Positions 351 to 63,093 of a stretch of 64,000 nucleotides of DNA are shown one piece after another. Within the stretch, counting starts at the first letter, position 1. Every line of letters starts with the position of its first letter. This stretch comes from Bimastos eiseni (lineage: Eukaryota > Annelida > Clitellata > Crassiclitellata > Lumbricidae). Under the pieces are notes generated by a model. It did no database searches. It was not told the DNA's origin and worked only from the letters and a program-made list of their open reading frames with translations. The stretch lies in the NCBI GenBank assembly GCA_959347315.1, contig OY365810.1:460001-524000 (forward strand). The letters are read 5' to 3'. The position numbers were made by a program, and so were the translations under genes.

Positions 351-577
351 CTGTAAGTGAAGTGCTTGTGTTAAAGCCAAGTAATCTTCAACCCTTAGAC
401 AAAATAATCTCGAAGTCCGTCGTGTATTGAGGTAATAAAAGCATTAAATCTGATATTAACTTACCTTATCTTACTTTACACATGCCTAGTCATTCGACTG
501 TCAAGGACAAACTGTCAACGTGAGGTCTATGAATTGCCATAGAACAATTACACAACAGTTGGACAATATTGACTGAC

Positions 578-758
578 CTCCAAACATCACTGGCTTTAGA
601 AAACTGGGCGGATTCAAGAACTTCTCGAGCCATCCAAGCATATGACCCAACCTTTGACATAGTAGTTGTATGGTCAGATTCACGTATCTGATCAAAGTCA
701 ATTATCTTCAGTGTCTTTCCACAAGGATTGGTAGCAGCATCAGCTTCCATTATGATAA
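578..758 (-). CDS. Kinase copy 1, exon B (activation segment)
   Basis: 181 nt between a TTTTAG acceptor (phase 1) and a GTCAGT donor (phase 2, inside the codon after DVW). It encodes the activation segment with DFD for DFG and ARE for APE, then ASDVW of helix F. It has exactly the length of the equivalent exon at 62799-62619. Confidence 0.78.
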
Positions 759-3700
759 CTAAAACATAAAAATCAAAGCGTAAATTAAAAGTGTTTTTCC
801 AGTCTTAAGCTGAAAATAGTTCGCTTTCTCATTTTATCTGAATCTGAATATGATGCATCAAGCAATCATGCAATTCTTTTGAGAAGGCCTTAACAGAGTC
901 CATTTATAAGCCATCTTGAGAGATACGTTATTTATAGAAAATGTTTCAGACATACAGGCATACTCTTCAACGCACTTTCTATTTGATAAGTTCTAATGCC
1001 ACCGTAATCTTCGGTTGCACCTAATCGCAAATGCCAGCAAACGTTCAGGCTTGTCCAATTTGTGAAATCCAATATCCAATAACTGCATAACATTTATATG
1101 ACGTTCACCTTGGCGTGCACACTGATCTCTCGGTTTCTCCAAATGTTCTGAAACCCGCTATTGTTCCGGCTGCCTTTGCTATTATCTACCCTCATCTCTT
1201 TGTCACAGTCATTGTCCCAAGTCAGCAAGCTTCACGGAGAGAAACATTCGTTCACATTCTAAACATTCGTTCACATTCTAAACATTCGTCACATTCTAAA
1301 CATTCGTTCACATTCTAAGCATTCGTTCACATTCTAAACATTCGTCACATTCTAAACATTCGTTCACATTCTAAATCCTTTTCCGAAATCATGTTCTCAA
1401 TCATTCCACATATCAGTGATATGTTTTCATCGATGCGGATTCATAGTCCTGCAGCTTTCCCTCTTCTATGGTGTAGTTCCCCATTTCTCTGAATGGATAT
1501 AATTTCTATACCAATGATACTCAAAAACAGCGCCATCAATTGATGCACTCAGTCTAAGACACAGTCGCAATAAAAGTGCAGATTAATATTAATAATAATA
1601 ACAATAATCATAATATTAATAAGAATAATAATAATAACCTACATAATTATTAATTTGGATGTTTGTTACATGTATCTGATTCAATTGTTCAGCTGATGTC
1701 TGCAGTCAACTTTGTCTAATGTTCTGCTGGGGACAAGAACCAGGGACCAAAGGACATCTACCAATGGTTATACTCTGACAGTACCCATCCACATCCTTAG
1801 TGAGGAGGGAAACATCAATCATCTCCGATATGCAATAGTGCAATTTTTAAATCAATCATGTAAAATAACTCGTGACATGCGTAACATTTTCATCCCTATG
1901 AGCCTACGTCTGCAAGGCTATCTTTGGAAAATGCATCGGTGTTCATGGTGGGATCCGTGCAATTCATCCTAGACATTTCCCCCCGGATTTCCTCCCGGGT
2001 GCTTCAATAGGACAGTTCCTCCGGGGCAATTTCCCGCAATTTTATCTATGCTTTACCGTGAAGCTAAATTTGTCTAATATTTTCTGATTATTTCCTTTCT
2101 GACATATGTTTTATTTATTCGAGGATCCTGAACTGTGGTTAATTGTGAAGCTTAATTTATATAATATTTGCTGGATATTATTTAAACAAGCCAATTTATC
2201 TGAGGGTTTGATGTTTATTGATTCTGTTGCTATATAATCTGCCATGAATTTGTTCCAAAGTCAATTGAAGAGCAAACCAAAGAGATGCCGTTCGAAACTG
2301 TTGCTAGTATTCGTGGACATAGCAAGGTTATTCTATGTGAAACAACAAAATTAATTGTCAAATAATATAGCTAGTTATGAGTGCGAACGTTGTAGAGGTG
2401 CAGGAGCAAATTCAAGTGAGTGTAAAGCAAAGGTAGGCCTAAAATTAAATGAAATTCTATCATTTGTTAGTCACCTTCCTGAGCACAATCGAGCTGCTGA
2501 TGCGGTTCATGTGGAGATACTCAAAGTCCGGTCACGTGTCAAGGAAAGTGAAGAAACAACGCAACAAATTCTGGGTCGAGAATTACAGCTTCTCAGTCCG
2601 CAAGCAGCCGTTCAGACGCTTGTGAGACGAAACATCAGAAGAATAAAACAACAGAAGAATGTTGTTCATCCTATTGGTTGCAGGAGAAATTGTCCTATTG
2701 AAGAACCGGGGGGGGGGGGGGGAGCAACCGGAGGAAATGTCGGGAGAAATGTCAGAGGGAATTGACCAAAACTCCTCTTTGATTATTGTAACTCACTTCT
2801 GACTGATATCACCACGTCAGATATCCTGTATCTACGTGGAAGTTCTGAAATCTTTGGCTAGAGCGATTACTAATGCATCTAACTATTTATGAGCATATAA
2901 CCTCAGTGCAGAAAGGTTCATTTAAAACTGGGGGTCATAGTTTATAAATCTGTGAACTCTGGCCAACCACAACATTAAAAATCAGTTTTTATTCCAGCAG
3001 ACTAATCACTATTCAATGAGGCCTTCTGATCATCTGGTCATACGTAAATCTAGAACTTTACTTGCTGATTTTCGGTTTCTGCGACATTTTGGAACCCTCT
3101 ACTTTCGTCTGTGTGTTCTGCTCAGTCATTCGTCATTTCGTTCTTAACTGAAAATTAACCTCTATCAAGTTGCATGTCAGCAATAGGCTAATTCTCTGTT
3201 TTATAAACTGATCTTCTGAATATTGACCTTGTAACGGCTTGGTTTTTGTGCAGGCCCTAACAGAGCAATAAAGATTAGCCTGATTTAGGAGATCCCAACT
3301 CATTCGAATGCTCTCATCCATCCGACTTCTGTTGGAGCAAGATACTCATCACCAATCCATCTCAACGTAAACATGACTCATTTTATAAATCCCGTTCTGT
3401 TTAAGCATGATTCTTTTCATCAAAACCGTTTCTCATTAGGAACGAATTCTATTCATCAATCCCGGTTCTACGCAGGCGACGCGTGGTATTTTTCACCAAT
3501 CATCCAGCTTCTAGTTAGATAATAAATCTATTCATCAGTCCCGCTTCCATTAAAACCGCAATCATTATCGTCTATCGACCGGACACTACTCTTCAAACTA
3601 TCGGACCTTTGGACTAAAGACACAGAACCCAATGCCCCAAACCTACACTTAATGATCTAGAAGTCTTGATCACACTTGAAACACCTTGCTTTGACGCCTC

Positions 3701-4518
3701 CGTTTCCTTTCATTTATAATAGGAACACAGATGATTGCCAATTATAAGAACTTCGTTTCACTCCATAAAATGCAATGTTGATGTGAGTATTTTTAAAAGT
3801 GAATAGGCTCAGAGCAAGGGCATAGGGCATAGCAATAAGATGTTCATGCTGTAGACAGAAATTAGTTGAGGTAAACCAACAATTGAGATCAGAAGGCGAG
3901 GTTGTTGAGAATGGCACAAGAGTAAATTTTTATTTATTTGTTGTATCAAATATAGGCCTACGTCATAAAATCTATCAAAGATTGGATTGCCATTAAGAAA
4001 CTCTTGAGTTGCATTACCAATGTGTCAAACAAAATACTTGTTTATATAATAACAAATTCCCAATAACACAATATATATATATATATAATTATAAACTTAC
4101 TGTTTGGCGACTTGAGGTCTCTGTGAAGGATGTTGTTTTCATGAAGATATGCCATGCCTTGAGCTATCTGAATGCCCCAGTCCGTGAGAATCTGCACTGG
4201 AAGAGCCGATTTGCACTGTCCCAAAACATCCTTCAAAGACCCTCCACTACCATATTCTAGCAGTATATATAGAGCAGGAGGATCATAGCCTACATCGTAA
4301 ACAGTTACTAAATTTTTATGATGCAGCGACATCCACTTTGCACATGCTTTTTGTTCCTTCTCACATGTTTCCTCTTGTCCACACACTCGCTTCTTAACTG
4401 CACAAGTCTTATCTTTCCAAATACACGGACCATACACTTCACCAAATCCTCCTTTTCCAATAAAACCACAACCAGATATAAGCTGGCTCAAGTTTATGTC
4501 CTCACTACCAACAGCCAT
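578..4518 (-). CDS. TKL (MLK/TAK1-like) protein kinase gene, copy 1, partial
   Basis: Predicted cytosolic Ser/Thr kinase of the TKL group. Two clear exons join in phase 1: 4518-4101 (N-lobe to catalytic loop) and 758-578 (activation segment to helix F). Seen: G-loop GKGGFG at residues 21-26, beta3 Lys in AVKK (K42), HRDLKSPN ending at residue 139, then DFD instead of DFG, and the APE motif changed to ARE. An in-frame TAA lies six codons before the ATG with no AG between, so Met1 is the real start and there is no ectodomain. The wording of the activation segment (KTLKI, SYAWMA) is closest to mixed-lineage kinases; TAK1 is the alternative. The downstream end lies in or beyond the first 577 bases; a shortened C-lobe exon may be at 350-271. 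The APE change suggests weakening or decay. Confidence 0.75.
759..1241. other. Intron sequence, no gene seen
   Basis: Lies in the intron between exons B and A of kinase copy 1. AT-rich, with no coding exon or recognisable element. Confidence 0.5.
1242..1374 (+). repeat. 18/19-bp minisatellite
   Basis: Seven tandem units of AACATTCGTTCACATTCTA, some lacking one T (18 bp), with one A-to-G variant. It lies inside the long intron of kinase copy 1. Confidence 0.9.
1972..2753. mobile_element. Small TIR element carrying a FLYWCH/MULE-like relic
   Basis: The left end (GACATTTCCCCCCGGATTTC, then GCTTCAATAGGACA) is an imperfect inverted match to the right end, where TGTCCTATTGAAG and GGAAATGTC occur in reverse. 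The right arm carries a G homopolymer of about 16 bases. No clear target duplication was found. The interior holds remains of a transposase (separate entry). Confidence 0.55.
2285..2680 (+). pseudogene. FLYWCH-type zinc-finger/MULE transposase fragment
   Basis: Read with one frame change near 2350, this gives a degraded FLYWCH-like segment (SIRGHSKVIL, then SYECERCRG), the HNRAAD stretch corresponding to the usual HNH-PD, and a tail like those seen in MULE transposases (VEILKVRSRVKES, then LVRRNIRRIK). Only the N-terminal DNA-binding part of a transposase remains, and a TAA and a frame change break it. The assignment rests on motif memory. Confidence 0.5.
3340..3565 (+). repeat. Degenerate ~37-bp repeats (fold-back arm family)
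   Basis: Diverged copies of a unit resembling TTTAAGCATGATTCTTTTCA followed by TCAATCCAGCTTC. The same unit occurs at 20.3-20.75, 44.3-45.0, 50.3-50.6 and 54.3-54.5 kb, so this looks like a stranded arm of that element family. Confidence 0.55.
4101..4518 (-). CDS. Kinase copy 1, exon A (N-lobe to HRD loop)
   Basis: 418 nt, starting at ATG and ending in phase 1 at a strong GTAAGT donor directly after the catalytic-loop Asn. It encodes the whole N-lobe with intact ATP-binding Lys and HRD Asp. The exon boundary is identical to those of the copies at 63582-63159 and 20026-19597, which shows common descent. Confidence 0.8.
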
Positions 4519-10769: not shown

Positions 10770-10924
10770 TTATTTGCTACATATAATTTTGCAGTGAAGT
10801 ACTACATCGTATGCAGCAGTCCTCTTTTGTGTTACTGCATGGATTTTATCCACTAAGTTCCAGAAAATACTTGCAGTAGTCGGCCTACGCATCCTATGTT
10901 CTGGTCTTCTTGTTGAGTTGCTGT
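10770..10924 (-). CDS. Pseudokinase receptor exon 10: end of kinase domain and C-terminus
   Basis: 155 nt, acceptor TTTTCAG, phase 1, stop TAA at 10772-10770. Encodes MRRPTTASIFWNLVDKIH, the subdomain XI Arg-Pro region, and about 20 further residues. Frame and phase fit exon 9 exactly. Confidence 0.75.
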
Positions 10925-13900
10925 CTGAAAAGAAAAGAAAAACCTAACTTCAATACATTATGCAATTATTTAGTAACGTTGTCATCAATAAGTACTTACT
11001 TTATTTTATTGCAGTTATACTACAAACGAAGCTTAGCCAAACAATGAACTATCTAGCTGCTGCTCTTTAGACCGTTACGTTAAGATAATTATTTTCAAAC
11101 AATGACTTTGAGCAGGAGTCTAATTCTTACCCCACTCCATTGGCGCAACATAAGTCACTTAGATTCTAAATAAGATTCAAGACGTGTATTGTCTTCTTCC
11201 TGTATAAGTTCCTCTTCTTCTGTGGGACATTGTAACTTCACCTTTCCTTCTATGTCCTTCATCAGCTTTTAATTAATTGCGTTCCTTACCGAATATTGGA
11301 CTACATCTCCAATGTTAGATCTTGATAGGAAGCTAGGTACCTAACACATTAGAGATAAGCTGATCGAAACAGGACAACGATCCTAAATTTGAGAAGATGA
11401 AAGAGAGATTGGGTCCGGAGTCAACGCCTGTCAAATCAGCAGCGGAATATCTGAATTGTATCATACAGTTGTTTGGTATATCAGAAATATTTTCATATAG
11501 GATTCCAGATAAAATTTTATATGGCCGGACGGCAAGTTTGGTGGTTGTTTGAGCTGTATACAAACATAGGCAGAGGTAAGGAGTAAAGGACGGTAAAGAC
11601 TTGCTTCTCTTCCAGGTTATTAAACGTTTTCACCTGCAGCAGCATTGTTTCATACTTTCTAACAATGTCTATACTGCAGCATCTCAAGATATTTTCGCCT
11701 CAAACGTTTACAGCACAGGCCAATCTGTTTCTGGAATTTCAGTTCCGTCGTTTCAAATTTAAGATGCTTCCATCTTTAGTTTCTGTCAAATTTGGCAGCT
11801 TGAATTCTGCATCCACAATTTATTCTGAAAAATTACACTTTGAAATTGGAAGGCACAAAGTTCAGTCTTGGTCACCAATAGCATTAACACTTTTCGTAAT
11901 AGTATTTAACATCTAGGCCTATTTATAGCACTCCCTCATTTGGTCTTTTGTTTAAATAACATAACCCGATCAGAGGAAGGCTTATGTGCAATTGTGTGGA
12001 TACTAAAAGTAAGTACCTACATTCCATGCTTGTAGACGTTGTACTATATTGCTAAACGATGGTCTTTCTGAAGAGTCTTCTTTCCTGCAGTCTGAATTAA
12101 ACAACAACAACAACACATTAATTCAAACGAATTAAGTCAAATATATCACAATTAATATTGAAGCAGAAAACCAGAAAATAGTTTTTGCAGTGCCATATTA
12201 CAGTTCAAGTGTACAATTACAAGATCGTAATCGTAATCTCAACATTTCTACAACGCCCACAAAAGCGAAGTCGCGGGAACCAGCTTATTCACAAGAGCGA
12301 CAACAAGAAACGGTGAGAGTCACAATCATCGTAAACTATAAGGAGATACTGTTTACCCAGTAAATTGACTTCTTTGATAAATCGTTGTCATTGGTTATGT
12401 CATTGATGTTATTATAACAACTTAGATGTGCGTAACACTGCGTATGCTAACGGTTCAATAAATGAATATAAACTACTAACCAATTAAAATTCTTTCCAGC
12501 TTCTTAGGACACGAATCCGGAATCTCAAGTCGTCTGGCTCCATTCCGAATGTCGGCGATGATTTCTGTAAGTACCTTTTGATCTTTGTACGGCTGTTTTT
12601 TTGTCAGTATCTCCCAAATGATAATGCCAAAACTTTAAATGCAAGCAACACAACTGACATTGAATGGGCCGGGTAGACCGCTGGTATGGCTGTTTTTTCT
12701 TCTTCAGTAGCACTGCCAATACAGGGCAGCGTTACTGTAAAACAAATTGGTCTGTACGAGATTTATCAATAGGTCTCATCGGTCATTGTATGTTCTATTG
12801 TATAATGGGTAAGATTTCTAATAAACACACTGATCACATATGAATAGCATTAAATAGAGACGGTAAAAGTTGTCATTGCGTTGCAGCAACTCCTCTGTTA
12901 ATTAAGACATTCGTTTAGAATTAGTACAATCTGAAAACGTAGATATGCTTAAATGAGTAACAGTTAGCAATAATACTACCTAGAATTATAACATGGAATT
13001 AAATGTTGTTGTACAATGATCGGGGATAAATTGAGTGTGTATTTGGGAGGGAGGACATGGTTGTGTGTTCTGTCAATCAATCAATCAATCAACCAAAAAT
13101 ATTTGATATCGCGCCCATTCAAGGTATCTACTCAGAGGCGCTCCCTCATCCTTGGCTAGAAAAGACAGTTTTAAGAGAGGAGTAAATGAAGATGATGAGT
13201 TCTTCATCGTCATGAGGAGACGGAGATATATGGGAAGTCCATTCCAGATGGTAGGTCCCACGACCGGGAAAGCCCGATTCTGCATCATAGAAGTGCGCGC
13301 AAAGGGACGATCAAGTCGCCATGAACTGCAGAGCGCTCATAGAGTGGTCGTCCACCATTGCTGGCAGTGATAGGGCGACATGGCTCCTGCAAATAAGCAG
13401 GCTCTGTACTGTCAAGACAGCGCCCAACCAAGGCAGTTCTCTAGGTCTTGGTTGTTGGGGGTGGGGTGGGTGTCATAGGACGATCTCTCATAGGACGTTC
13501 ACTCATACGACGATTACTCATAGGACGTTCACTCATACGACGATCACTCATACGACGATCACTCATAGGACGTTCACTCATACGACGATCAGTCATAGGA
13601 CGTTCACTCATTCGACGATCACTCATAGGGCGTTCACTCATACGACGATCACTCATACGACGATCACTCACAGGACGTTCACTCATACGACGATCATTCA
13701 AAGGACGTTCACTCATACGACGATCAGTCATAGGGCGTTCACTCATTCGACGATCACTCATAGGGCGTTCACTCATACGACGATCACTCATACGACGATC
13801 ACTCACAGGACGTTCACTCATACGACGATCATTCAAAGGACGTTCACTCATACGACGATCAGTCATAGGGCGTTCATTCATACGACGATCAGTCATAGGG

Positions 13901-16900
13901 CGTTCACTCATACGACGATCACTCATACGACGATCACTCATATGACGTTCACTCATACGACGATCACTCATAGGGCGTTCACTCATACGACGATCACTCA
14001 TAGGACGTTCACTCATACGACGATCAGTCATAGGACGTTCACTCATTCGACGATCACTCATAGGGCGTTCACTCATACGACGATCACTCATACGACGATC
14101 ACTCACAGGACGTTCACTCATACGACGATCATTCAAAGGACGTTCACTCATACGACGATCAGTCATAGGGCGTTCACTCATACGACGATCAGTCATAGGG
14201 CGTTCACTCATACGACGATCACTCATACGACGATCACTCATAGGACGTTCACTCATACGACGATCACTCATAGGGCGTTCACTCATACGACGATCACTCA
14301 TACGACGATCACTCATAGGACGTTCACTCATTCGACGATCAGTCATAGGGCGTTCACTCATACGACGATCACTCATACGACGATCACTCATAGGACGTTC
14401 ACTCATACGACGATCAGTCATAGGACGTTCACTCATTCGACGATCACTCATAGGGCGTTCACTCATACGACGATCACTCATACGACGATCACTCATAGGG
14501 CGTTCACTCATACGACGATCACTCATACGACGATCACTCATAGGACGTTCACTCATACGACGATCAGTCATAGGACGTTCACTCATACGACGATCACTCA
14601 TAGGGCGTTCACTCATACGACGATCACTCATACGACGATCACTCATAGGACGTTCACTCATACGACGATCAGTCATAGGACGTTCACTCATTCGACGATC
14701 ACTCATAGGGCGTTCACTCATACGACGATCACTCATACGACGATCACTCATAGGACGTTCACTCATACGACGATCATTCATAGGACGTTCACTCATACGA
14801 CGATCAGTCATAGGACGTTCACTCATTCGATGATCACTCATAGGGCGTTCACTCATACGACGATCATTCATAGGACGTTCACTCATACGACGATCAGTGA
14901 TAGGACGTTCACTCATTCGACGATCACTCATAGGGCGTTCACTCATACGACGATCACTCATACGACGATCACTCATAGGACGTTCACTCATACGACGATC
15001 AGTCATAGGACGTTCACTCATTCGACGATCACTCATAGGGCGTTCACTCATACGACGATCATTCATAGGACGTTCACTCATACGACGATCAGTCATAGGA
15101 CGTTCACTCATACGACGATCACTCATAGGACGTTCACTCATTCGACGATCACTCATAGGACGTTCACTCATACGACGATCACTCATACGACGATCACTCA
15201 TAGGACAGTTCACTCATACGACGATCAGTCATAGGACGTTCACTCATTCGACGATCACTCATAGGACGTTCACTCATACGACGATCATTCATAGGACGTT
15301 CACTCATACGACGATCAGTCATAGGACGTTCACTCATACGACGATCACTCATAGGACGTTCACTCATACGACGATCAGTCATATGACGTTCACTCATTCG
15401 ACGATCACTCATAGGGCGTTCACTCATACGACGATCACTCATACGACGATCACTCATAGGACGTTCACTCATACGACGATCAGTCATAGGACGTTCACTC
15501 ATACGACGATCACTCATAGGGCGTTCACTCATACGACGATCACTCATACGACGATCACTCATACGACGATCACTCATAGGACGTTCACTCATACGACGAT
15601 CAGTCATAGGACGTTCACTCATTCGACGATCACTCATAGGGCGTTCATTCATACGACGATCAGTCATAGGGCGTTCACTCATACGACGATCACTCATACG
15701 ACGATCACTCATAGGACGTTCACTCATACGACGATCACTCATAGGGCGTTCACTCATACGACGATCACTCATAGGACGTTCACTCATACGACGATCATTC
15801 ATAGGACGTTCACTCATTCGACGATCAGTCATAGGACGTTCACTCATACGACGATCACTCATAGGACGTTCACTCATTCGACGATCACTCATAGGGCGTT
15901 CACTCATACGACGATCACTCATACGACGATCACTCATAGGACGTTCACTCATACGACGATCAGTCATAGGACGTTCACTCATACGACGATCACTCATAGG
16001 GCGTTCACTCATACGACGATCACTCATACGACGATCACTCATACGACGATCATTCATAGGACGTTCACTCATATGACGATCAGTGATAGGACGTTCACTC
16101 ATTCGACGATCACTCATAGGGCGTTCGCTCATACGACGATCACTCATACGACGATCACTCATAGGACGTTCACTCATACGACGATCAGTCATAGGACGTT
16201 CACTCATTCGACGATCACTCATAGGGCGTTCACTCATACGACGATCATTCATAGGACGTTCACTCATACGACGATCAGTCATAGGACGTTCACTCATACG
16301 ACGATCATTCATAGGACGTTCACTCATACGACGATCAGTCATAGGACGTTCACTCATACGACGATCACTCATAGGACGTTCACTCATACGACGATCAGTC
16401 ATAGGACGTTCACTCATTCGACGATCACTCATAGGGCGTTCACTCATACGACGATCACTCATACGACGATCATTCATAGGACGTTCACTCATACGACGAT
16501 CACTCATAGGGCGTTCATTCATACGACGATCAGTCATAGGGCGTTCACTCATACGACGATCACTCATATGACGATCACTCATAGGGCGTTCACTCATACG
16601 ACGATCACTCATACGACGATCACTCATACGACGATCATTCATAGGACGTTCACTCATACGACGATCAGTGATAGGACGTTCACTCATTCGACGATCACTC
16701 ATAGGGCGTTCACTCATACGACGATCACTCATACGACGATCACTCATAGGACGTTCACTCATACGACGATCAGTCATAGGACGTTCACTCATTCGACGAT
16801 CACTCATAGGGCGTTCACTCATACGACGATCATTCATAGGACGTTCACTCATACGACGATCAGTCATAGGACGTTCACTCATACGACGATCACTCATAGG

Positions 16901-19900
16901 ACGTTCACTCATTCGACGATCACTCATAGGGCGTTCACTCATACGACGATCACTCATACGACGATCACTCATAGGACGTTCACTCATACGACGATCAGTC
17001 ATAGGACGTTCACTCATACGACGATCACTCATAGGGCGTTCACTCATACGACGATCACTCATACGACGATCACTCATACGACGATCATTCATAGGACGTT
17101 CACTCATACGACGATCAGTGATAGGACGTTCACTCATTCGACGATCACTCATAGGGCGTTCACTCATACGACGATCACTCATACGACGATCACTCATAGG
17201 ACGTTCACTCATACGACGATCAGTCATAGGACGTTCACTCATTCGACGATCACTCATAGGGCGTTCACTCATACGACGATCATTCATAGGACGTTCACTC
17301 ATACGACGATCAGTCATAGGACGTTCACTCATACGACGATCACTCATAGGACGTTCACTCATTCGACGATCACTCATAGGGCGTTCACTCATACGACGAT
17401 CACTCATACGACGATCACTCATAGGACGTTCACTCATACGACGATCAGTCATAGGAAGTTCACTCATTCGACGATCACTCATAGGGCGTTCACTCATACG
17501 ACGATCATTCATAGGACGTTCACTCATACGACGATCAGTCATAGGACGTTCACTCATACGACGATTACTCATAGGACGTTCACTCATACGACGATCAGTC
17601 ATAGGACGTTCACTCATTCGACGATCACTCATAGGGCGTTCACTTATACGACGATCAGTCATAGGACGTTCACTCATACGACGATCAGTCATAGGACGTT
17701 CACTCATTCGACGATCACTCATAGGGCGTTCACTCATTCGACGATCACTCATAGGACTTTCGCTCAAAGGACGCTTCCTCACATCTGTTCCGTAAACCGA
17801 CTGATAGGAAAACTGGACATTAACTTAGTTGACGAATACCAAACGTGATGCAAATATTAAGTGCTCGAGCAATGAGTAAACGAAAAACCGAAGGTGTGCT
17901 AATTGATATTTAATGTTATTGTTTAAAAACGGGTACTGAAATCATAACACCTAAAAATACTGAAGAGTATTGCTCGGCACATTTATTTGATTGTCTAATT
18001 ACGGAAAAATTAGTATTTAATTTGACATACCAATAGTGTCTATGCTCAGGCAACATCTTTCTTAGTTTATTTTTAGCAGGCTTCCATCTTATTTACTTGC
18101 TAAATATGTTGTTATTTATTTGCTGTATGAGTGAACGTTCTTTGAGCGAATGTCCGAGGACCATTTGGAGTGTTGCTTTAATAATAAATAATAAATGTAA
18201 TAATAATGACGATGACGAGTTTCGAGTGACGCTCTAGAAGTTTGGAGATCACCACTACGATTAGGAAGGATTATAGTGGAGATAAAAATAATGTGAGACC
18301 TATCTGTCGCACAGCCACGACCTATGGCTAACGACCTAACCATATAATTCAAATATAATATCCAATGGTACAATTTCTTGCGTACCTCCATACATCCCCT
18401 TTACTTGTGTAGGATCCATCAAAAACCTCAGGAGCTTTAAAGGAAAACTTCTCTTCCACTGTTTGGGTGCTCGTAAAGTTGTCATCGATTAGGCAGTATT
18501 GCGATATTTTTAGAGTTTTGTGAGAGACATCAGGTGATTCAATGACAAGAACTGGAACCAAATTGTAAAAGCGCACTTTCAAGTGAAATCAAAATTTACC
18601 ATCCGGTGCAACGCATCACTAAAACCGAAATTATATCACTACCTACCTGTACTTTTCCTGGCAAACTCGCACTCCGACCTAACGTGTAGCTTCTGGCTAT
18701 CTTATCATGCCAGTTCAGCATTCTATATAACGATGTATTCCCAACAACCACTATCGGACGCCATTCAGCTTTGACCAGATTAGATTCTGATTAAGCAAAC
18801 CAGCAACCTGCTTATTGCTGTGTCATTTGGCTCAGCACTTGTGAATACGCTGGTATTCGCTATGTTGCACTGAGAAATTATGCATTATACTATATCGTAT
18901 TGCTGTTGGTGGCAACACTGAACTAGTAAGATGTATCTTTGCCTCCAGTCATTTTCGTTTGAAGGAATACATAAAAATAAATCATAGACTTGAAAACGAC
19001 ATATGCAATTCGACCTTTTATTAACTAAATGAAACATATTGCGATTTATGCAACCATTCGAGCAGAGTTCAAACTTTAAAAAAGTCAAATAACTTCACTG
19101 ATTCAGCACCTTTAGATTTTCCTCCTAAAGCATGACTTAATTTTTCATTCCAGTTTTCATACAACGAATACATGTAGCTTGTGTGTAATTTGGCTCTAAC
19201 CTATTACTACCTAGTTGACACAACTAATTTGACCCAGATTAAAAGAGTCTTAAAGGTTGCATAACTATAAGACTAATGCAACTATCCAACATGTCTGCAT
19301 CACACAAACCAGCTTATACTGCACAAATCATGGAATATTAGGTGCTAGTACTTGTAATCTGGAATAGAAAATAAGCCTTAGGGCCTGGAAAGTATTGGTA
19401 GGCATTATTCCTATTGCCAATGTATCTTGGAATGCATGTATATTTTTACCCATTGTGTTTCTTTTAGCGCCATAATCATGGGTTCAAACTTTCAGTTTTA
19501 CGAATGTATACAATTTTTTATTAAGCCGTTGACTCTTGCTGCATTACTGTGATGCACCGATGCTAATAGATATTTTTAAACTTAAAATAAACTCACTTTG
19601 AGTCGAACTAAGATTTTTGTGAATGATGTCTTCCTCGTGTAGATACTTCATACCACTGGCGATTTGCATGGCCCAGTCTTTTACCATTGGTAGATTCACT
19701 TCAGACTCTGTGCATTTCTCCAATGCACTCCTCACGGATCCTCCTGCTGCATATTCCATCATGACGTAAACAGATGGAGATAGTAGGACTACGTCGTAAA
19801 ACTTTATCAGATTCTTGTGATTCAACGCCATCCATTTTCGGCCTTTGTTGTAGACTTTCTCTTCTTTAGTCAACTCCCCTTCGTTGGTTTTGGTTACTTT

Positions 19901-22900
19901 AGTACACATGATTCGTTCACAGGCGCAGTCTATATCTTTGTACTGCATAGGGCAATGTAATTCACCACCACTTGATCCTTTCCCGATACAGCGGGCTTTA
20001 GAAAAGGCATTTTCCATGACATTCTGCTGTCCAAAGAAATGACAACGTTGAATGAAGTAGGCAGAATAATTAGTAATAAATAAGACGTTTATATAACATC
20101 TAGCATAATCCGGCTAGTAGTGTTGTTTGCATAATGAAGTTATTAATTTTTAAACTGTCTAAAAAGTGAATCTATTAGCATAATTTCTCATATGGACTAA
20201 ATATTCAACGAAAAAGCAGTTCAGTCATCCATTCGGAACTGTTGCGAAGTCAGTGACGAAGTTAAACACAATGGAACGCCATCAATTTTTTGCTATAAAT
20301 TTTTCACCAGTGCACGTTTTTCCCCATAAATTTTTCGCCAGTATCTTTTTTCGCCATTTCATCGATCCAGCTTCCATTTAAGCCTGATGATTTTCATCAA
20401 TCCAGCTTCTATTTAAGAAGATCTGTTTTAATCGATCCAGCTTAGTCATATAGAAGCTAGACGAATTAAAATAATCAGGTTTAAATGAAAGCTGGATCGA
20501 TTAAAACAGATTTTTTAAGCAGAAGCTGGACTGACGAAAATCATCAGGCTGAAATAGAAGGTGGATTGATAAAAATCATCAGGCTTAAATAGAAGCTGGA
20601 TCGATGATAAAGAATTACGTTTAAACGGAAGGTATTTAAGACGAAGCTGGTTTGATGAAAATCATCAGGCTTAAATGGAAGCTGGATGAATGAAATGGCG
20701 AAAAATACGTCGGAGAAGAAAGTGTACTGGCGAAAAATTGATGGCGAAAAATTTACTACTCTGCATTCATTTTTTTCGGTTATTAGCTCAACTACGATAA
20801 TAAAATTGAAGATATTCTTGCCCAAAGATAATAGCAATAGAATAATGGGTAACTTAATACTCGGCCCACACATAGGTCCGTAGACTATGCAGTATTTAAT
20901 TTAGTAAAACTTGTCAATACCATATTGTCACAGCCATTTGGCACCAGTCCTACATTCTCCTCTGGTTGTTGTGGTGATCCATGATCTACAACAGGTAATT
21001 CATTCAGTTATCAAATTCTAAAAACATTTTAAAACTAATATTAGCTAATATTAACTTGTTTTGCGCTTTGCTAATACAAATCACATCAGCTAATGGGACA
21101 CCAAAACACAGCCTAAGGCCATTTCAGATTCACTGGCAGTAAGCTAAAGCAAGGAGGCATTTATTTAGCAGAACGCTGTTAGCAGATAAGACTAATAACT
21201 TAAAGACAGGATCATTAGGCTATTAATCTACTTCTACCTAAGTATATCTACTGTGCTAAGTATCAATAGACAATATAATGTATTCGCTTTGACGGTGAGC
21301 CCAATTATTAGACGGGGCGGCTAATTTATTAAATGTTACTGGCATTCTTTTCAGGCGTTTCTTAAAAGAATGACATGGAGAGCAAAAAATGTGAAATGAT
21401 AGTCATGGTGCGGTCCATCACACTCTTCCTCTAATATGTAGACATGTTTGAATTTGTCTTGTATACTGATACCTTAGATGTTGCTTTGCTGCATATGCGC
21501 GACTGGAAAAGTTTGTCCTTGAAAGTCAAGTAAGTCTCTAAACTATTTTGCACTACAATACACTACTTTACCGTTAGAAATCGTCGCCTAAGACAATTAT
21601 TAATTCACACAAAGCAGATCACAAGTAACACTTACTCTTCTTCCGAAAGTACCGGTTGTACACTAATGCAGCAACGATGACGACGATAGCAATAACGGGC
21701 AGCATCAGTAACCACAGCAAATTGAGATTCTCTGAAGTGCCTGCACTACTCATTGCTACATCAACAAAACAGATCAATAAACAAACAGATCAAAGAAATT
21801 ATGTGCTTGCAGTTATATCATCGTCATCATAACCATAATCGTCCACTCGATTACTGTTACTCACTCTATGTACATGTAGGTCTCCCTGTTGGGCGGTTGG
21901 ACCGGGTCCTGCGTTCTGCTGCACGTCTTGTCGCGTGCATTATGAAATGTGACCATGTCTCCGGCTATAGAAGCTGGATGTACTCCACAGGCTCCCCCTC
22001 CAACAGGGAATCTCGCACCGTATCATCGCTTTTGTCTGGCGGTCCTTGTTGGATTTCTCCTCTGCCTATCTTCGCGATCTCTGCTACTCTATTTTGAGTG
22101 CATCGGGTCGCCACTCTCCCTCTACTGAGCGAGGCCTGCTAATTGTCCCATTTGCCCGTACAACTACTAAACAGCATTTTGCCTCCTCGATGGTTGGTTT
22201 GGGAGGTGGAGAGGGACACTTAATGAGAGGGGTTAGAAATATGGGGAGGACAAACGTATAACGTGTCCTCTTTCTGCAAAAGGTGAGGGACTTCTCCCTC
22301 TCGACCTTCCTGGATCGCCGCCTTCGATCACTTATAATGGCGGAAGATTGTGCATAATTGTGCAGTAGAATAATAAAGTAAATTTACCTGTGTCTGAAAC
22401 GTTGACAACCATAGCCGTGAACGCACATGTGTCACTTCTTATGCTACACTCAGCCTCACATCTATAAATGCCAGAATCGCTTGGTTTCAGTGTCTGACCC
22501 AATTCCTCCGTTTTGTTGTCTTTGTACCATTTGTACGAACATGACAGGTCCTTGCTCGTGTTGGCCGAACAAAACACTTCGTCTGTCGTGGTAGTAGCTG
22601 TCGTCACTGATGTGTCCGAAAACGCATCTGCATATCAAGACAAATATTTATGATGATTATGATCATAATATTGACCTGAGGTTCCGGCTGGCATTGATCA
22701 TTTGTCAGAATGAGGTCTTAAAGAACAATGGTGGTTGTTCGTTACAGAGCGACTTCGTGGATCAAGTAATGTTCGATATTGGATGGTGGACATTGATAGT
22801 GTTATTGCGTATCGCAGACAATAACACTTGTCGTCCGTCTTTCAGCCTTCCAGGACTCTCAACACACTGTCATCTGTCAGCTAGTGTTTGCAACCAGTAC

Positions 22901-25900
22901 ATGCATGTGCGCGAGTCTGGTTCTGGTGACAGTTGTATATATAACATTAGTCGAACATTGATTACACATAAAACCAATCCACCGGTTCTTTGTATCTTCT
23001 TCTTAAAACCCATCAAAGTATCAACAGAGGCAGTGCCCTCATTCAAACCCTTCCACATGCACCTGTCCAATGAACTGTGTTTCTCGTTTCCAGTTTTATC
23101 TAGAACTGACCGGCGAATGTGTTGCAACGATAGCGCTACATAAGTTTTCAGTTTCAATTACATTTGAATTGATATGCGCATCAGTCATAGACATGTTTCC
23201 ATATTTGCAAAGAACATTTACAAAGCGCCTCTTGAAGAGAATTATATTTATCAGAGGGGCTAAATACGCTAACAAAACTCATGTAAGCTGTCATTATCTC
23301 GTTAACTTCAGCTAGGGTTGCCAGGTAGTCTTGAGGAAATTACCGGACAACGGTGAATGACTAGCGGGGTCTGCGAGCGTGGGGTCGTGGGGATTTTGGT
23401 TAGGTCAGTTAACGTAAAGCAGACAAGCAGTTGTCATTTGAGCGATATGATGATGCTGAGTCATGGACAATTTAGAATAAGTGAATTAAGCACACTTGGC
23501 ACTTAATCACAAACTCACAACTCAGGAGTCACAGGCTCACAGCCCAAAGGATTGGATCTGATTTTCTCAGAAGTGTTCACTGTTAACATCATGGTCAGTG
23601 AGTCAATGAGAGTCAGATCAGAACGTCCGAGTCAAACGGTAAGAGTCTGTCGGACAGATCTAGGGCCAGTCAGTCGTCACGGAAGTTGAGTTACTGGTCA
23701 GACGTTGGCACATGTAGTGTAGAACTTTTGTGCGAGTTGCAGTAGCACCATGCCACTATAGGCTAGGAACTAAGCTGTCACACTTGCGAATTTAGCCCTA
23801 GAATACCTCAACATTAGCGTTAGATACAGGCATTGACAGCACGCATTGAACAATTCTGAGGAGCATGTTTTCTATTGAAGAATAGGCGCCATTTCTCACC
23901 CGTGCTGCCTTTCCTTCCTGAAAAATTGACTAAGTGCTGTGACCTCGTTGGCTAGAGCTAAGAATAGGTACAAAGTATCAGATGGAGACTCGGACCATGG
24001 ATGAGGATGCGATATGGTATATACTTCAAAAGCAAGTGCCAAGTTATCAGTTTTCACTTTTTTCATACATTGTATGTATTAAATATTTTCAAACTAATTG
24101 TTATTAACAGTTAATTTAGCAGTGATTATTAATTAGTTACCACAAATTATCGGACACCCCTATGTCCGGTAACGTGTGAAATTTCTGACCGCACAGTCTC
24201 TCCAACTACCGGACTGTCCGGTTCAATACCGGACCCCTGGCAACCCTAACTTCAGCAGATTGCATGGCTGCAAAATTACTAAAATCCGTGCCATGTTAAA
24301 AATTCTGCCGTAGACAGAGGCATTCCATATTAATTTAAAACTCCAATAACAAATAATGTTCATAAAAATGACTGCAGAATCTATGCAACGAAAATAGCTT
24401 TTGAGTTAATTTGCACAGGTGATAAAATCCCCTAATACGCTGAACTCACAAATAGCTTTGTTGACTTTCAAAGAACAGTTGTATTGTTTTGCTGTCTTCA
24501 CTTGGCAAATATAGACGGATCCATCCATGTTAAGACTAGCTTCCAGTGTTGCATTACACGTCACACGATTGCCCTTATTGTCACATTTAGTCTTATTGGA
24601 ATCCACTTCACTGCCAAGTTTTATCCATTCCATCTGAGGAGGAGAGTTTCCACTGTATGTCACACTACACTGTAGTTGCAGTTGGTCCGGTGCTATGGGT
24701 TTAGTGCATTCAGTCGGTCCAACAACTTCGTTAAGATCCTTGTCCGACTCACACACTAGATTTGAATCTACAGAAAAATAAATAAAAGCCGAGTTAGATT
24801 AATTAAAACAATTAAGTTACAACTTTTAAACTGCTTGCATAAATTCTTCTATGAAAACTGAATGTTCTCATTAAACTTGGCTTAAAGTTAACCCTTTCAA
24901 CTTATTCACTTTCTCAGGCAGCCTATTGTGTCATCTACGACACATTCCTAAATTGCTTGTATAAAAATCGATATCAACGCGTCAATACTGTATTATTTCA
25001 ACCGACTTTAACTGAATATTTTTTACGGTCCAGATTAAAGGACTCTCCATCGCATCTCAATGCATGTTCATTGTTTGCACATTATTCTCATACTTCCTTA
25101 TTCCCAAGTAATTAAGTAACAGAACCTGGTTCCTACAAATTTGTCAAATCTCGTGTGTTGAAGCCATAAATAGTATAATCAGTAGATCTACTTTAACACC
25201 ACGCAATAGATGCACGTCTTGAAGAGGCGCAACATCAAGATTCATTGATTGATTCATTTAAGTTAAGTATATAAATAACTGATTATAAATCAAGCTAAAT
25301 ACTTCTGGCATGTACACATACATAAGTGAGTAATATTGGTATAGTATATGCAAATACAATACAATAAATGCGACGATAATTAAGCGACAGACTAACACTA
25401 AAATTGTGCATTTTGAAATCATGGCGTTGGATAATTACCTAGAACAATGAGTTCGGCTGATGCTCCTGTTCCCTTCAAAACATCTTCCACACATTCATAT
25501 TTACCAGAGTCTTTTGACCCTGGTCTCTGAACTAGCAAGTTGAAAATTCCAGAGGTCACATTTTTGTCTATGCTGAACCTCTCTTTGTATTTATCTCTAA
25601 TTCTTCCATCCTCGTAAACACCTGCAGAGACTCCACCCAAAGGTTGATGATACCAGGTAAGCTCTTCCAAATCGCCACTGGAATTGTTAATTGACTTCGA
25701 ACAGTTGAAAAATGTTGTATGATTGACAATTATTATTGCATCTTTTGGCGTTTGGATGAGAAAACCTTCAGCTAATAAAAAAAACATAACATTGTTGTAG
25801 CGAGGCTATGGATGCAATCTTAGAAAGTTATGTAAAAATTATATCTTGTAATAGACTATGCAACAATAAGATTATCATCACAAGAAATTAAATCGTTCTC

Positions 25901-26665
25901 AAGCAATTTAAATTTTGTAGCTTACTCGATATGTTTGGTGTCACGGAAGCTAGTTTGTAATGTGTATCACGCAGTTCAAATTATATTGGCTACAACTATT
26001 AATATTACACGTAGGCTTACTAAAACTGTTATCCATTACGGCCTACTCTAAGGTCCATCTGAGTCCCTGACGATAGCTTTTGCAGCGCTCCGAGGAACGA
26101 GTGAGTCTAGCAGCCACGCAGGTCGACTGCCTGGAGATGCCACTTGACCTTTGACGTAAGCAGCTGATTATGGAGTAGGCCTACATCCTGAAGATAAATG
26201 CCATCTCAGATCATCACTAATGGTCGCAAGTTTAAAACAGACAACATGGAACCAACTCTAGTCCAAAAGAGACGGATCACCAACGAAATTGTCACACCAA
26301 CGACTGAAGCGATCGTATCCACCGCAAGATCACAGTAGCACACATACGTCCACTCACTAAGGACACTGCTCTGAAGGAGACGATAAGAGACACGGGCGAC
26401 CTCCTCATGTGGAAAGCCATGGTCGAAGGTCTCATCATTGACCACGATGGACCAGTGGATGTGTATACGAATATAAAGCGTAAACTTAGGAAGCTTGAAT
26501 TTATGACCATTTGGACTACAGATTTTAGTCTTGAAATGGTCGAACGGTGTAGCTGATACTTATAGAGCAACAATTACACTTACCACTTTCATATGGAACA
26601 CATAATAGTGCAAGCAGCGTAGGAGCAACTTTCACAAAAAACTCTACCAGATAACAGTTCGTCAT
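10770..26665 (-). CDS. Ig-domain receptor with TKL pseudokinase tail (686 aa, 10 exons)
   Basis: Predicted cell-surface receptor. Exons: 26665-26584, 25771-25439, 24767-24450, 22627-22388, 21755-21636, 20985-20921, 20026-19597, 18551-18386, 12632-12481, 10924-10770. The lengths sum to 2061 nt and every junction keeps frame. Order: signal peptide (1-~22), Ig1 (28-138), Ig2 (139-244), Ig3 (245-324), membrane helix (~337-357), juxtamembrane (365-386), kinase-like domain (387-~665), short C-tail. Beta3 Lys is E423, HRD is H522-K523-N524 and DFG is Q547-Y548-C549, so catalysis is not expected. APE (569-571), helix-F Asp (D582) and the subdomain XI Arg-Pro (649-650) are kept, implying a folded scaffold or allosteric role. 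It is divergent from the ITAM receptor at 30168. Family assignment (MLK/TAK1-like) is by motif; the joined model is my inference from splice signals. Confidence 0.85.
12246..12295 (-). mobile_element. LINE 3'-end stub
   Basis: About 50 bp (on the minus strand GTGAATAAGCTGGTTCCCGC, then CTTTTGTGGGCG) matching the 3' end of the LINE at 5667-6115. A severely 5'-truncated insertion in the last intron of the pseudokinase receptor. Confidence 0.5.
12481..12632 (-). CDS. Pseudokinase receptor exon 9: C-lobe
   Basis: 152 nt, phase 2 to phase 1, acceptor ATTTAAAG, donor GTTAGT. Encodes SFGIIIWEILTKKQPYKDQ and EIPDSCPKKLERILIG, unmistakably kinase subdomains IX-X. It lies about 5.75 kb from exon 8, across the 15-bp minisatellite. 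Confidence 0.85.
13085..13300 (-). mobile_element. LINE RT C-terminal fragment
   Basis: Minus-strand open stretch with RAFPVVGPTIWNGLP and FTPLLKLSFLAKDEG, a LINE ORF2 tail. It abuts the minisatellite. Confidence 0.6.
13473..17775 (+). repeat. 4.3-kb minisatellite, 15-bp unit, inside the receptor intron
   Basis: About 286 tandem 15-bp units of two main types, ACTCATACGACGATC and ACTCATAGGACGTTC (with GGG, AGTCAT and ATTCAT variants). They alternate in blocks, and a roughly 450-bp higher-order unit is visible (16666 and 17116 onward are almost identical for over 300 bp). As 15 is a multiple of three and the unit has no stop in most frames, long open frames of up to 983 codons exist on both strands. 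They are low-complexity artefacts. One extra base near 15207 shifts all frames. The array sits in the intron between exons 8 and 9 of the pseudokinase receptor. Confidence 0.95.
18126..18152 (-). repeat. Isolated inverted copy of the minisatellite unit
   Basis: The reverse complement contains ACGTTCACTCATA preceded by CGCTCAAAG, matching the right edge of the array (17761-17775) in opposite orientation, about 350 bp away. Confidence 0.65.
18386..18551 (-). CDS. Pseudokinase receptor exon 8: activation segment
   Basis: 166 nt, acceptor TTCCAG (phase 1), donor GTACGC (phase 2). Encodes KTLKISQYC, where other copies have KTLKITDFD, then an intact KAPEV and SKGDVW. Metal-binding Asp is lost, while the structural elements of the C-lobe are kept. 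Confidence 0.85.
18600..19590. other. Intron, nothing recognised
   Basis: Intron between exons 7 and 8 of the pseudokinase receptor. No repeat or coding signal was seen. Confidence 0.5.
19597..20026 (-). CDS. Pseudokinase receptor exon 7: N-lobe to HKN loop
   Basis: 430 nt, phase 0 to phase 1. The G-loop GKGSSGG is kept, but the ATP Lys is Glu and the catalytic loop reads HKN. The acceptor could be at 20026 or 20023 (CAGCAG). An internal Met (M390) lies just ahead of the domain, where the flanking kinase genes have their start codon. Confidence 0.85.
20278..20757. mobile_element. Fold-back element with ~37-bp subrepeats
   Basis: Left arm (GCCATCAATTTTTTGC, AATTTTTCGCCAGT, TTTCGCCATTTCATC, then repeats of CCAGCTTCCATTTAAGCCTG) is matched in reverse by the right arm (CAGGCTTAAATGGAAGCTGG, GAAATGGCGAAAAA, AAAAATTGATGGC). 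Long imperfect inverted arms built of short tandem units are the hallmark of Foldback-like elements. It lies in the intron joining the juxtamembrane and kinase exons. Confidence 0.75.
20921..20985 (-). CDS. Pseudokinase receptor exon 6: juxtamembrane linker
   Basis: 65 nt, phase 1 in and phase 0 out, acceptor CTGTTGTAG, donor GTATTG. Too short to stand out as an open frame, but it is the piece that converts the phase-1 membrane exon to the phase-0 kinase exon. Encodes a Pro/Gln/Glu-rich linker (GSPQQPEENVG). Confidence 0.7.
21636..21755 (-). CDS. Pseudokinase receptor exon 5: transmembrane helix
   Basis: 120 nt, phase 1-1, acceptor TGATGTAG, donor GTAAGT. Encodes a Ser-rich linker and one hydrophobic helix (LLWLLMLPVIAIVVIVAALV) followed by a basic stop-transfer (NRYFRKK), giving a type I topology with the kinase-like domain inside the cell. 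Confidence 0.88.
21835..22215 (+). mobile_element. LINE RT C-terminal fragment
   Basis: Plus-strand pieces in shifting frames (RLDRVLRSAARLVACI, then LLSEACLLIVPFARTTTKQH) match the usual CR1-like sequence around LQRVLNSAARL and GLLVVPR. It fills the intron between Ig3 and the membrane exon. Confidence 0.6.
22388..22627 (-). CDS. Pseudokinase receptor exon 4: short Ig3
   Basis: 240 nt, phase 1-1. A short Ig-like domain after a Thr-rich stretch: LSCSYKWYKD and DSGIYRCEAEC. It has extra cysteines beyond the canonical pair, suggesting a second disulphide. The other receptor has no counterpart. Confidence 0.85.
22640..23304. other. Intron, nothing recognised
   Basis: Part of the intron between Ig2 and Ig3 of the pseudokinase receptor. 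Several short open frames, none with a known motif. Confidence 0.4.
23313..24248. mobile_element. hAT-type non-autonomous element (TAGGGTTGCC family), copy 1
   Basis: 936 bp with inverted ends TAGGGTTGCCAGG and CCTGGCAACCCTA, flanked by a perfect 8-bp duplication ACTTCAGC (23305-23312 and 24249-24256). Subterminal CCGGAC/GTCCGG motifs recur. No transposase. Inserted in the intron between Ig2 and Ig3 of the pseudokinase receptor. Confidence 0.9.
24450..24767 (-). CDS. Pseudokinase receptor exon 3: Ig2
   Basis: 318 nt, phase 1-1. QCSVTYSG, QMEWIKLG and DGSVYICQV give Cys, Trp and Cys of an Ig fold. It aligns with QCSVNFSG, SMEWIQHG and NGSYYSCKL of Ig2 in the plus-strand receptor, so the two domains are paralogs. 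Several N-glycosylation sequons are present. Confidence 0.9.
25439..25771 (-). CDS. Pseudokinase receptor exon 2: Ig1
   Basis: 333 nt, phase 1-1, as usual for shuffled Ig exons. The Ig core is visible: FFNCS, LTWYH, and DSGKYECVE. It ends in AELIVLG, matching AHLIVLG at the end of Ig1 in the ITAM receptor. Confidence 0.88.
25860..26575. other. Intron with an unassigned open stretch
   Basis: Intron between the signal-peptide and Ig1 exons. On the plus strand about 26310-26556 an open stretch reads DLLMWKAMVEGLIIDHDGPV and ends FSLEMVERCS, which looks protein-like, probably a mobile-element remnant. I do not recognise it. Confidence 0.3.
26584..26665 (-). CDS. Pseudokinase receptor exon 1: signal peptide
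   Basis: ATG to a perfect GTAAGT donor, phase 1. Encodes a hydrophobic leader (VAPTLLALLCV) typical of a cleaved signal peptide. It puts the next Ig exon in frame (G plus CT gives Ala). Confidence 0.8.
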
Positions 26666-30084: not shown

Positions 30085-30167
30085 AATTGATTTAGTGTAT
30101 GTTAATCCTGAGTAGGCAATTCAACTCAGCTTTCTCTTGTTTTCCGACGCTTCTAACAAACAGGCTA

Positions 30168-40735
<10,568 letters not shown>

Positions 40736-62600: not shown

Positions 62601-62618
62601 AACTTTCTTCTGACTCAC

Positions 62619-62799
62619 CTCCAAATATCACTGGCCTTGGAAAACGAACCGTCGTCAATGACTTCTGGGGCCATCCAGGCATAAGTTCCAGCATCAGACA
62701 TGACTACCGTTCGCTCATGTTCCCGAATCTGATCAAAATCTGTTATCTTTAGTGTTTTCCCGCAAGGATTGAAGTCTGCATCAGGTTCCATTATTACGA
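62619..62799 (-). CDS. Kinase copy 4, exon B (activation segment)
   Basis: 181 nt, acceptor TTTATCAG, donor GTGAGT, phase 1 to 2. DFD and an intact APE; helix-F ASDIW follows. Confidence 0.82.
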
Positions 62800-63039
62800 C
62801 TGATAAATAAAGGAGAACAGTTAAAGAAACGTTTACTAAATTTAATATACTGCACTTCCGTCCCGTGTGAACCAAACTTTTTAGGTTGTTAATTGGTTAA
62901 CCAAGGCATTCGATAAATAGAGTAAGTCTAATGCTACTTACAGTTTAAAATGTGTATACGAATGGTGTTTTTGAATGAGAAATCCGAACATTTCTCAGCA
63001 ATCTCACCTCACTCAAGAAGTCTATGGAAGAGAGAGAGA

Positions 63040-63093
<54 letters not shown>

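What the first reader, a model, noticed from the sequence alone, without database searches (positions are those of the whole stretch)
10770..26665. Receptor fusing three Ig domains and a membrane helix to a dead TKL kinase
Ten exons give 687 codons including the stop in perfect frame. Ig ectodomains on a MLK/TAK1-like intracellular domain are not an arrangement I know in animals (animal Ig receptor kinases are normally tyrosine kinases; TKL receptors are TGF-beta type). Beta3 Lys, HRD Asp and DFG Asp are all replaced while the fold-forming residues stay.
Basis: partly seen in the sequence, partly recalled or inferred. Interest (0 to 1): 0.9.

Follow-up and report, generated by a model that had tools for sequence, protein, structure and literature searches.

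The report
Immunoglobulin receptor with dead MLK kinase
This animal gene encodes a predicted cell-surface receptor with three antibody-like domains joined through a membrane helix to an MLK-type kinase domain that has lost its catalytic residues and so likely works as a switch or docking site rather than an enzyme; it sits in a large cluster of duplicated relatives, and outside this genome the protein searches made here found the same kind of layout only in two unnamed database proteins.

Summary
On the minus strand ten GT-AG exons (26665-12003) give a predicted 664-aa protein: signal-like start, three Ig domains, membrane helix, TKL kinase domain closest to MLK1/MLK4. Beta3 Lys is Glu423, HRD Asp is Asn524, the catalytic-loop Asn is Gln529, DFG is Gln-Tyr-Cys. 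Two unnamed proteins (P0001, P0002) carry Ig-TM-dead kinase in single ORFs, which argues against separate transcripts. It is one of a family: on the same chromosome several paralogues pair such Ig exons with this kinase and lack the HRD Asp, forming one clade beside many soluble MLK-like kinases that mostly keep K/HRD. One sibling with a similar ectodomain has two CARD domains instead. Likely working: the dead domain is an allosteric or docking module for sibling kinases (inferred, untested). The mitochondrial code is not the echinoderm one. Closest known kind: Ig-receptor pseudokinases such as PTK7, but of another kinase group. New variant of a known kind; interest 0.75.

The parts
26584..26665 (-). 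exon 1, ATG and signal-peptide-like start (aa 1-27; by eye)
   Evidence: GT donor; P0001/P0002 align over it
25439..25771 (-). exon 2, Ig domain 1 (aa 28-138), phase 1-1
   Evidence: V-set 1.7e-06
24450..24767 (-). exon 3, Ig domain 2 (aa 139-244), phase 1-1
   Evidence: I-set 7.8e-10
22388..22627 (-). exon 4, Ig domain 3 (aa 245-324), phase 1-1
   Evidence: Ig_2 7.3e-08
21636..21755 (-). exon 5, transmembrane helix (aa 325-364)
   Evidence: hydropathy 2.9
20921..20985 (-). exon 6, juxtamembrane segment (aa 365-386)
   Evidence: 21 of 21 codons unchanged in the 582-kb copy
19597..20026 (-). exon 7, kinase N-lobe to catalytic loop: Lys->Glu423, HRD->HKN (Asn524), loop Asn->Gln529
18386..18551 (-). 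exon 8, activation segment: DFG->QYC (547-549), APE kept
12481..12632 (-). exon 9, kinase C-lobe (SFGIIIWEILT...)
   Evidence: same end in two paralogous copies and nearly the same in P0002
11819..11824 (-). AATAAA, candidate polyadenylation signal
13473..17773 (.). 30-bp minisatellite, 143 copies, inside intron 8
577..4518 (-). first two kinase exons (about 4518-4102 and 759-577) of a soluble MLK-like kinase paralogue with Lys and HRD Asp kept (kinA); continues outside the window
62618..63582 (-). two kinase exons of another MLK-like paralogue with Lys and HRD Asp kept
30167..40735 (+). neighbouring Ig-Ig-TM receptor with a tail holding YxxI/YxxM motifs; weakly similar Ig exons (exon borders by eye)

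Best explanation
Ten exons at 26665-12003 (minus strand) chain in frame into a predicted 664-aa protein with three immunoglobulin domains, a hydrophobic membrane-helix segment and an MLK-type kinase domain that lacks the beta3 lysine, the HRD aspartate and the DFG aspartate, so the protein is likely a catalytically dead cell-surface receptor that would signal by docking and allosterically switching on the MLK-like sibling kinases encoded beside it. Shown: the exon chain, the domains, the missing residues, the paralogues and their linkage. Inferred: surface location, ligand binding through the Ig domains, loss of phosphotransfer, clustering on ligand, and pairing of the pseudokinase with a soluble sibling (as KSR pairs with RAF; recalled), which would start a MAP3K-type (JNK/p38) defence response. 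CARD-tailed siblings would be the other outlet of the same ectodomain family.
Against: No transcript or protein of this gene was seen, and no evidence that the dead domain touches a sibling kinase. Against its nearest copy (582 kb; no Ig1, Ig2 or signal exon found there) the kinase dN/dS is 1.14, so recent constraint is not shown. The soluble siblings keep the DFG Asp but not its Gly (DFD or DFE) in 9 of 9 genes whose activation exon was read, so their activity is itself inferred. The Ig-linked kinases are one clade, so the association counts one event, not nine; its support, 90/75, is under the tree tool's star threshold of 95/80, and the Ig list is a lower bound, so a diverged Ig exon beside other kinases could have been missed. 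Ig-domain models were too poor to use.
Confidence: 0.45

Rival explanations
1. Decoy or inhibitory receptor: the dead domain likely sequesters sibling kinases or downstream MAP2Ks and damps signalling instead of starting it.
For: Same sequence facts as the best explanation; it sits beside a family of kinases that mostly keep their catalytic residues, which it could titrate.
Against: Nothing here separates activation from inhibition.
Confidence: 0.25
2. Decaying duplicate: the receptor is one of several copies made by duplication and is drifting to a pseudogene.
For: Kinase dN/dS 1.14 against the 582-kb copy, 41.5 nonsynonymous against 9.5 synonymous changes; a rearranged copy at 1121-1139 kb carries an internal stop.
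Against: Ten open exons with canonical splice sites; dN/dS 0.39 against the 931-kb paralogue; shared Glu and Gln substitutions; one-ORF relatives.
Confidence: 0.15
3. Two adjacent genes: an Ig-TM gene and a kinase gene that the model joins wrongly.
For: Soluble siblings begin at an ATG just before the glycine loop, and this kinase exon also has an ATG near its start.
Against: P0001 and P0002 span Ig, TM and kinase in one ORF; splice phases match across the TM, juxtamembrane and kinase exons; the 582-kb copy keeps TM, juxtamembrane and kinase exons in the same order.
Confidence: 0.05
4. The domain keeps some nucleotide binding or unusual catalysis despite the losses.
For: The related Ig-linked kinases at 379 kb and 2910 kb keep the beta3 Lys, so the losses were not all simultaneous.
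Against: Lys, HRD Asp, loop Asn and DFG Asp are all gone here.
Confidence: 0.1

Closest known systems
PTK7/CCK-4 type receptor pseudokinases (recalled)
   Same: Ig ectodomain, one membrane helix, kinase domain without catalytic residues.
   Different: PTK7's domain is of the tyrosine-kinase group (recalled); this one scores best with MLK, of the TKL group, and it belongs to a clustered, expanded family.
MLK family MAP3Ks (MLK1-4, ZAK, DLK)
   Same: Closest kinase-domain sequence and top structural match.
   Different: MLKs are soluble and active and carry SH3, zipper or SAM parts (recalled); this is a membrane receptor model in which Pfam finds none of these and which lacks the catalytic residues.
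Plant receptor-like kinases and their cytoplasmic kin, RLK/RLCK (recalled)
   Same: Variable ectodomain, membrane helix, TKL-type kinase, soluble kin, tandem expansion, frequent pseudokinases.
   Different: Ectodomain is Ig, the kinase is MLK-like, the organism is an animal; a likeness of working, not of descent.
TGF-beta receptors (animal TKL receptors, recalled)
   Same: Membrane receptors with a TKL-group domain.
   Different: No activin-type ectodomain or GS motif was found by Pfam.

Membership tests
MLK family (TKL group) | kinase domain closest to MLK | tested here: met
MLK family (TKL group) | SH3, leucine zipper, CRIB around the kinase (recalled) | tested here: not met
   Pfam scan of the 711-aa 11-exon version up to E 0.1 lists Ig and kinase families and a sub-threshold DUF7580 only; zipper and CRIB not searched separately
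MLK family (TKL group) | catalytic Lys, HRD, DFG | tested here: not met
   E423, HKN, QYC
PTK7-type receptor pseudokinase | Ig ectodomain + TM + catalytically dead kinase domain | tested here: met
   death of catalysis is predicted from sequence only
PTK7-type receptor pseudokinase | domain belongs to the tyrosine-kinase group | tested here: not met
   best PDB sequences are MLKs for the dead domain (1.3e-34 against 5.3e-32 for the Src/Abl ancestor) and, by far, for its sibling (MLK4 1.1e-36 against 2.6e-20); no kinome tree was built
TGF-beta receptor | activin-type ectodomain and GS motif (recalled) | tested here: not met
   no such family in the Pfam scan up to E 0.1
IL-1R/Toll type Ig receptors | TIR domain (recalled) | tested here: not met
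   no TIR in the Pfam scan
Plant RLK | IRAK/Pelle-lineage kinase (recalled) | tested here: inconclusive
   no tree with IRAK/Pelle was built; none appears in the best 60 PDB hits shown
PTK7-type receptor pseudokinase | measured catalytic inactivity | not testable with these tools
   needs protein

The most novel reading that the evidence does not exclude
An animal counterpart of the plant RLK/RLCK system: one chromosome carries a duplicating recognition complex in which a shared Ig ectodomain is shuffled onto interchangeable signalling tails (MLK-type pseudokinase, tandem CARD, tyrosine-motif tail), with soluble MLK-like kinases beside them as the enzymes that the dead receptor tails switch on.
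Probability: 0.3. Interest if true: 0.9.

Novelty: new variant of a known kind. Interest (0 to 1): 0.75.

Why it matters
Animal Ig receptor kinases are, as far as recalled, tyrosine kinases. Here Ig domains sit on an MLK-like (MAP3K) domain that has been emptied of its catalytic residues, in a family present in several copies with kinase siblings next door. If the pairing holds, it would show how an animal built a plant-like receptor/cytoplasmic-kinase immune complex, and the graded series of paralogues (Lys kept with HRN; Lys lost with HKN; and so on) would let the birth of a pseudokinase receptor be followed step by step.

Tried and rejected
Echinoderm host: rejected by the mitochondrial code; the phylum stays open (the table 5 code is shared by many invertebrate groups, recalled). 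Structure of the Ig part: both models unusable. Possible CARD tail on the soluble kinA gene: its subdomain XI exon runs into a stop right after ...LQQHRKHLKI, so the CARD exons 5 kb and more further on (C5:452-443 kb) probably belong to another gene. TM exon of the 1282-kb paralogue: not found; 200 bases there read N. Papers: ten searches (four of them returned nothing), listings and abstract starts only, no paper opened; no title or abstract start listed describes an Ig-TM-MLK receptor, but most subscription journals are not held. A whole-genome CARD count and the full-receptor genome query did not complete, so family counts come from the kinase and ectodomain queries alone, whose outputs say that only the best candidates were scored.

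Full report
What is there. On the minus strand of the window, exons 26665-26584, 25771-25439, 24767-24450, 22627-22388, 21755-21636, 20985-20921, 20026-19597, 18551-18386, 12632-12481 and 12091-12003 chain in phase with GT-AG borders into a predicted 664-aa protein. A hydrophobic stretch at 337-360, LLWLLMLPVIAIVVIVAALVYNRY, lies between them. P0002 ends at about the same place, and the copies at 582 kb and 1130 kb read VGTYF and then a stop.

Catalytic residues. CACE (Glu423 for the beta3 Lys), HKN (Asn524 for the HRD Asp), Gln529 for the loop Asn, and QYC (547-549) for DFG. APE, DVWSFG and the ERPSF arginine stay.

Is it one gene? The protein search of 5.77 billion sequences (only the 7994 candidates sharing most words were scored) returned two relatives with the layout: P0001 (623 aa, source jgi, 2777-base contig) and P0002 (607 aa, source lgn, 2102-base contig); a profile search with all three found no more among 7995 scored. 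Both are uninterrupted ORFs. P0002 covers what takes about 14.7 kb here, without a counterpart of Ig3; P0001 covers exons 1-8, over 8 kb here, and stops in what is intron 8 here (GDVWRY...), like a retained intron. So they are presumably spliced transcripts (inference); their host is unknown. Both lack the beta3 Lys, the HRD Asp and the DFG Asp.

Family and neighbourhood. The window is C5:460001-524000 of a 660-Mb, 118-contig assembly. Whole-genome queries with kinA and the dead domain match many exons, chiefly on C5 0.28-15 Mb and also C9 2.4-5.2 Mb; counts there are lower bounds. I read 38 genomic N-lobe exons, not all that are listed. Eleven of 38 lack the HRD Asp: 480k (window), 582k, 931k, 2454k, 1282k, 1267k, 1264k, 379k, 2910k, 824k, 1298k. 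Motifs grade: 379k and 2910k keep the Lys with HRN; 1298k keeps it with HGN; 2454k has CACE with HRS; 1282k CACE/HGH; 1267k CACE/HGR; 1264k Q/HSH; 824k E/HKN; 931k E/HKH; 480k and 582k E/HKN. One further row, 537k, has QRD. Ig exons of the same family lie on the same strand within 12 kb upstream of 10 of the 38, and 9 of those 10 lack the HRD Asp, against 2 of 28 others (Fisher p 3e-6, but the nine are one clade, so not nine independent events, and undetected Ig exons are possible). The tenth is a kinA-type copy (360k) whose ATG has an in-frame stop 15 nt upstream and no AG between, as in all four kinA copies, so it is not spliced in frame to an Ig exon. In an IQ-TREE of 40 rows, 12 of the 13 rows labelled dead, including P0001 and P0002, group together (90/75, under the tool's star threshold; midpoint root); 1298k falls elsewhere. 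In that group Glu replaces Lys in 9 of 12 and Gln replaces the loop Asn in 9 of 12, with Lys and Asn in 27 of 27 others (1298k left out of both sets).

Selection. Against the 931-kb paralogue dN/dS is 0.39 over kinase exons 7 and 8 (192 codons; exon 9 lies outside the fetched piece) and 0.27 over the three Ig exons (287 codons). Against the 582-kb copy the kinase value is 1.14; that copy has Ig3, TM, juxtamembrane and kinase exons, and in the fetched 5.5 kb beyond Ig3 no Ig1, Ig2 or signal exon but a copy of the + strand Ig gene; the exon 3 row of that script matches the neighbouring gene and should be ignored, and with it the 582-kb ectodomain total. So long-term constraint is likely, recent constraint not shown.

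Modular tails. Of the 120 matches, 115 are Ig exons on C5 (three TM exons and two rows on other contigs left out); they fall in 67 clusters by a 4.5-kb rule (lower bounds), far more than the kinase-linked ones. The one sibling whose downstream DNA I read for this (C5:3.58 Mb, Ig1-3 at 50-53% identity) has a TM exon and then two CARD exons, 4.3e-10 and 5.4e-10, both above Pfam's cut-off, and no kinase match in the 6 kb read. The + strand neighbour in the window has Ig-Ig-TM and a tail with YDII, YETI and YLEM (exon borders by eye; its Ig scores are under Pfam's cut-offs). CARD exons also lie in the same block at C5:452-443 kb and in its duplicate at 553-544 kb. So the ectodomain family appears with at least three kinds of tail.

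How it probably works. Inferred throughout: the Ig domains bind a ligand at the surface, clustering brings pseudokinase domains together, and these dock and switch on soluble MLK-like siblings whose Lys and HRD Asp are mostly kept, leading to a MAP3K-type response; CARD-tailed siblings would feed a parallel outlet. Precedents are recalled, not tested: KSR-RAF and HER3-HER2 for allosteric pseudokinase pairing. The siblings keep the DFG Asp but not the Gly in 9 of 9 genes whose activation exon was read (DFD in 8, DFE in 1), so their activity needs testing.

Host. COX1 on the 15.3-kb contig C118 fits ATA=Met, AAA=Lys, AGR=Ser, TGA=Trp. Table 9 (echinoderm) reads AAA as Asn, so the echinoderm premise is not supported; the phylum was not determined.

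Verdict. A real, intact-looking receptor pseudokinase gene with a domain combination for which the protein searches made here give only two unnamed relatives outside this genome, embedded in a duplicating Ig-receptor/MLK-kinase/CARD neighbourhood. Architecture: high confidence. Mechanism: moderate to low.

Noticed in passing
window 13473-17773: 30-bp minisatellite, 143 copies with a 225-bp higher-order period, inside intron 8 of the receptor gene.
   Followed up: no
window 30167-40735, + strand: Divergent neighbouring Ig-Ig-TM receptor with tyrosine motifs (YDII, YETI, YLEM) in a tail exon at about 40289-40735; a copy of its Ig2 exon lies next to the 5'-truncated second receptor copy at C5:586.5 kb.
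   Followed up: partly
C5:420001-584000 (L009-L018 and window): Segmental duplication of about 100 kb: kinase, receptor and CARD exons recur with offsets of about 96-103 kb.
   Followed up: partly
L077 (C5:3573801-3579850): Ig-TM sibling receptor with two CARD exons in place of the kinase.
   Followed up: yes
C5:452372-443067 (L011, L012): Three CARD exons on the minus strand between two soluble kinase genes; no Ig exon of this family found near by.
   Followed up: partly
window 577-759 and 62618-62803; L027, L030, L033: Soluble MLK-like siblings carry DFD (8 genes) or DFE (1) instead of DFG; 537k also has QRD instead of HRD.
   Followed up: partly
C5:1121-1140 kb: Rearranged copy of the receptor: N-lobe pieces on both strands and an internal stop.
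   Followed up: no
G000, COX1 matches on many contigs besides C118: Many nuclear copies of mitochondrial COX1, six of them matching the full profile length (C15, C16, C6 twice, C5, C4).
   Followed up: no
window 52140-53135, minus strand: Reverse-transcriptase-like ORFs of a retroelement (by eye).
   Followed up: no
P0014 (960 aa): Unnamed database protein with three PF07714 stretches and an SH3 domain, the best-scoring non-family protein for the P0002 kinase region.
   Followed up: no
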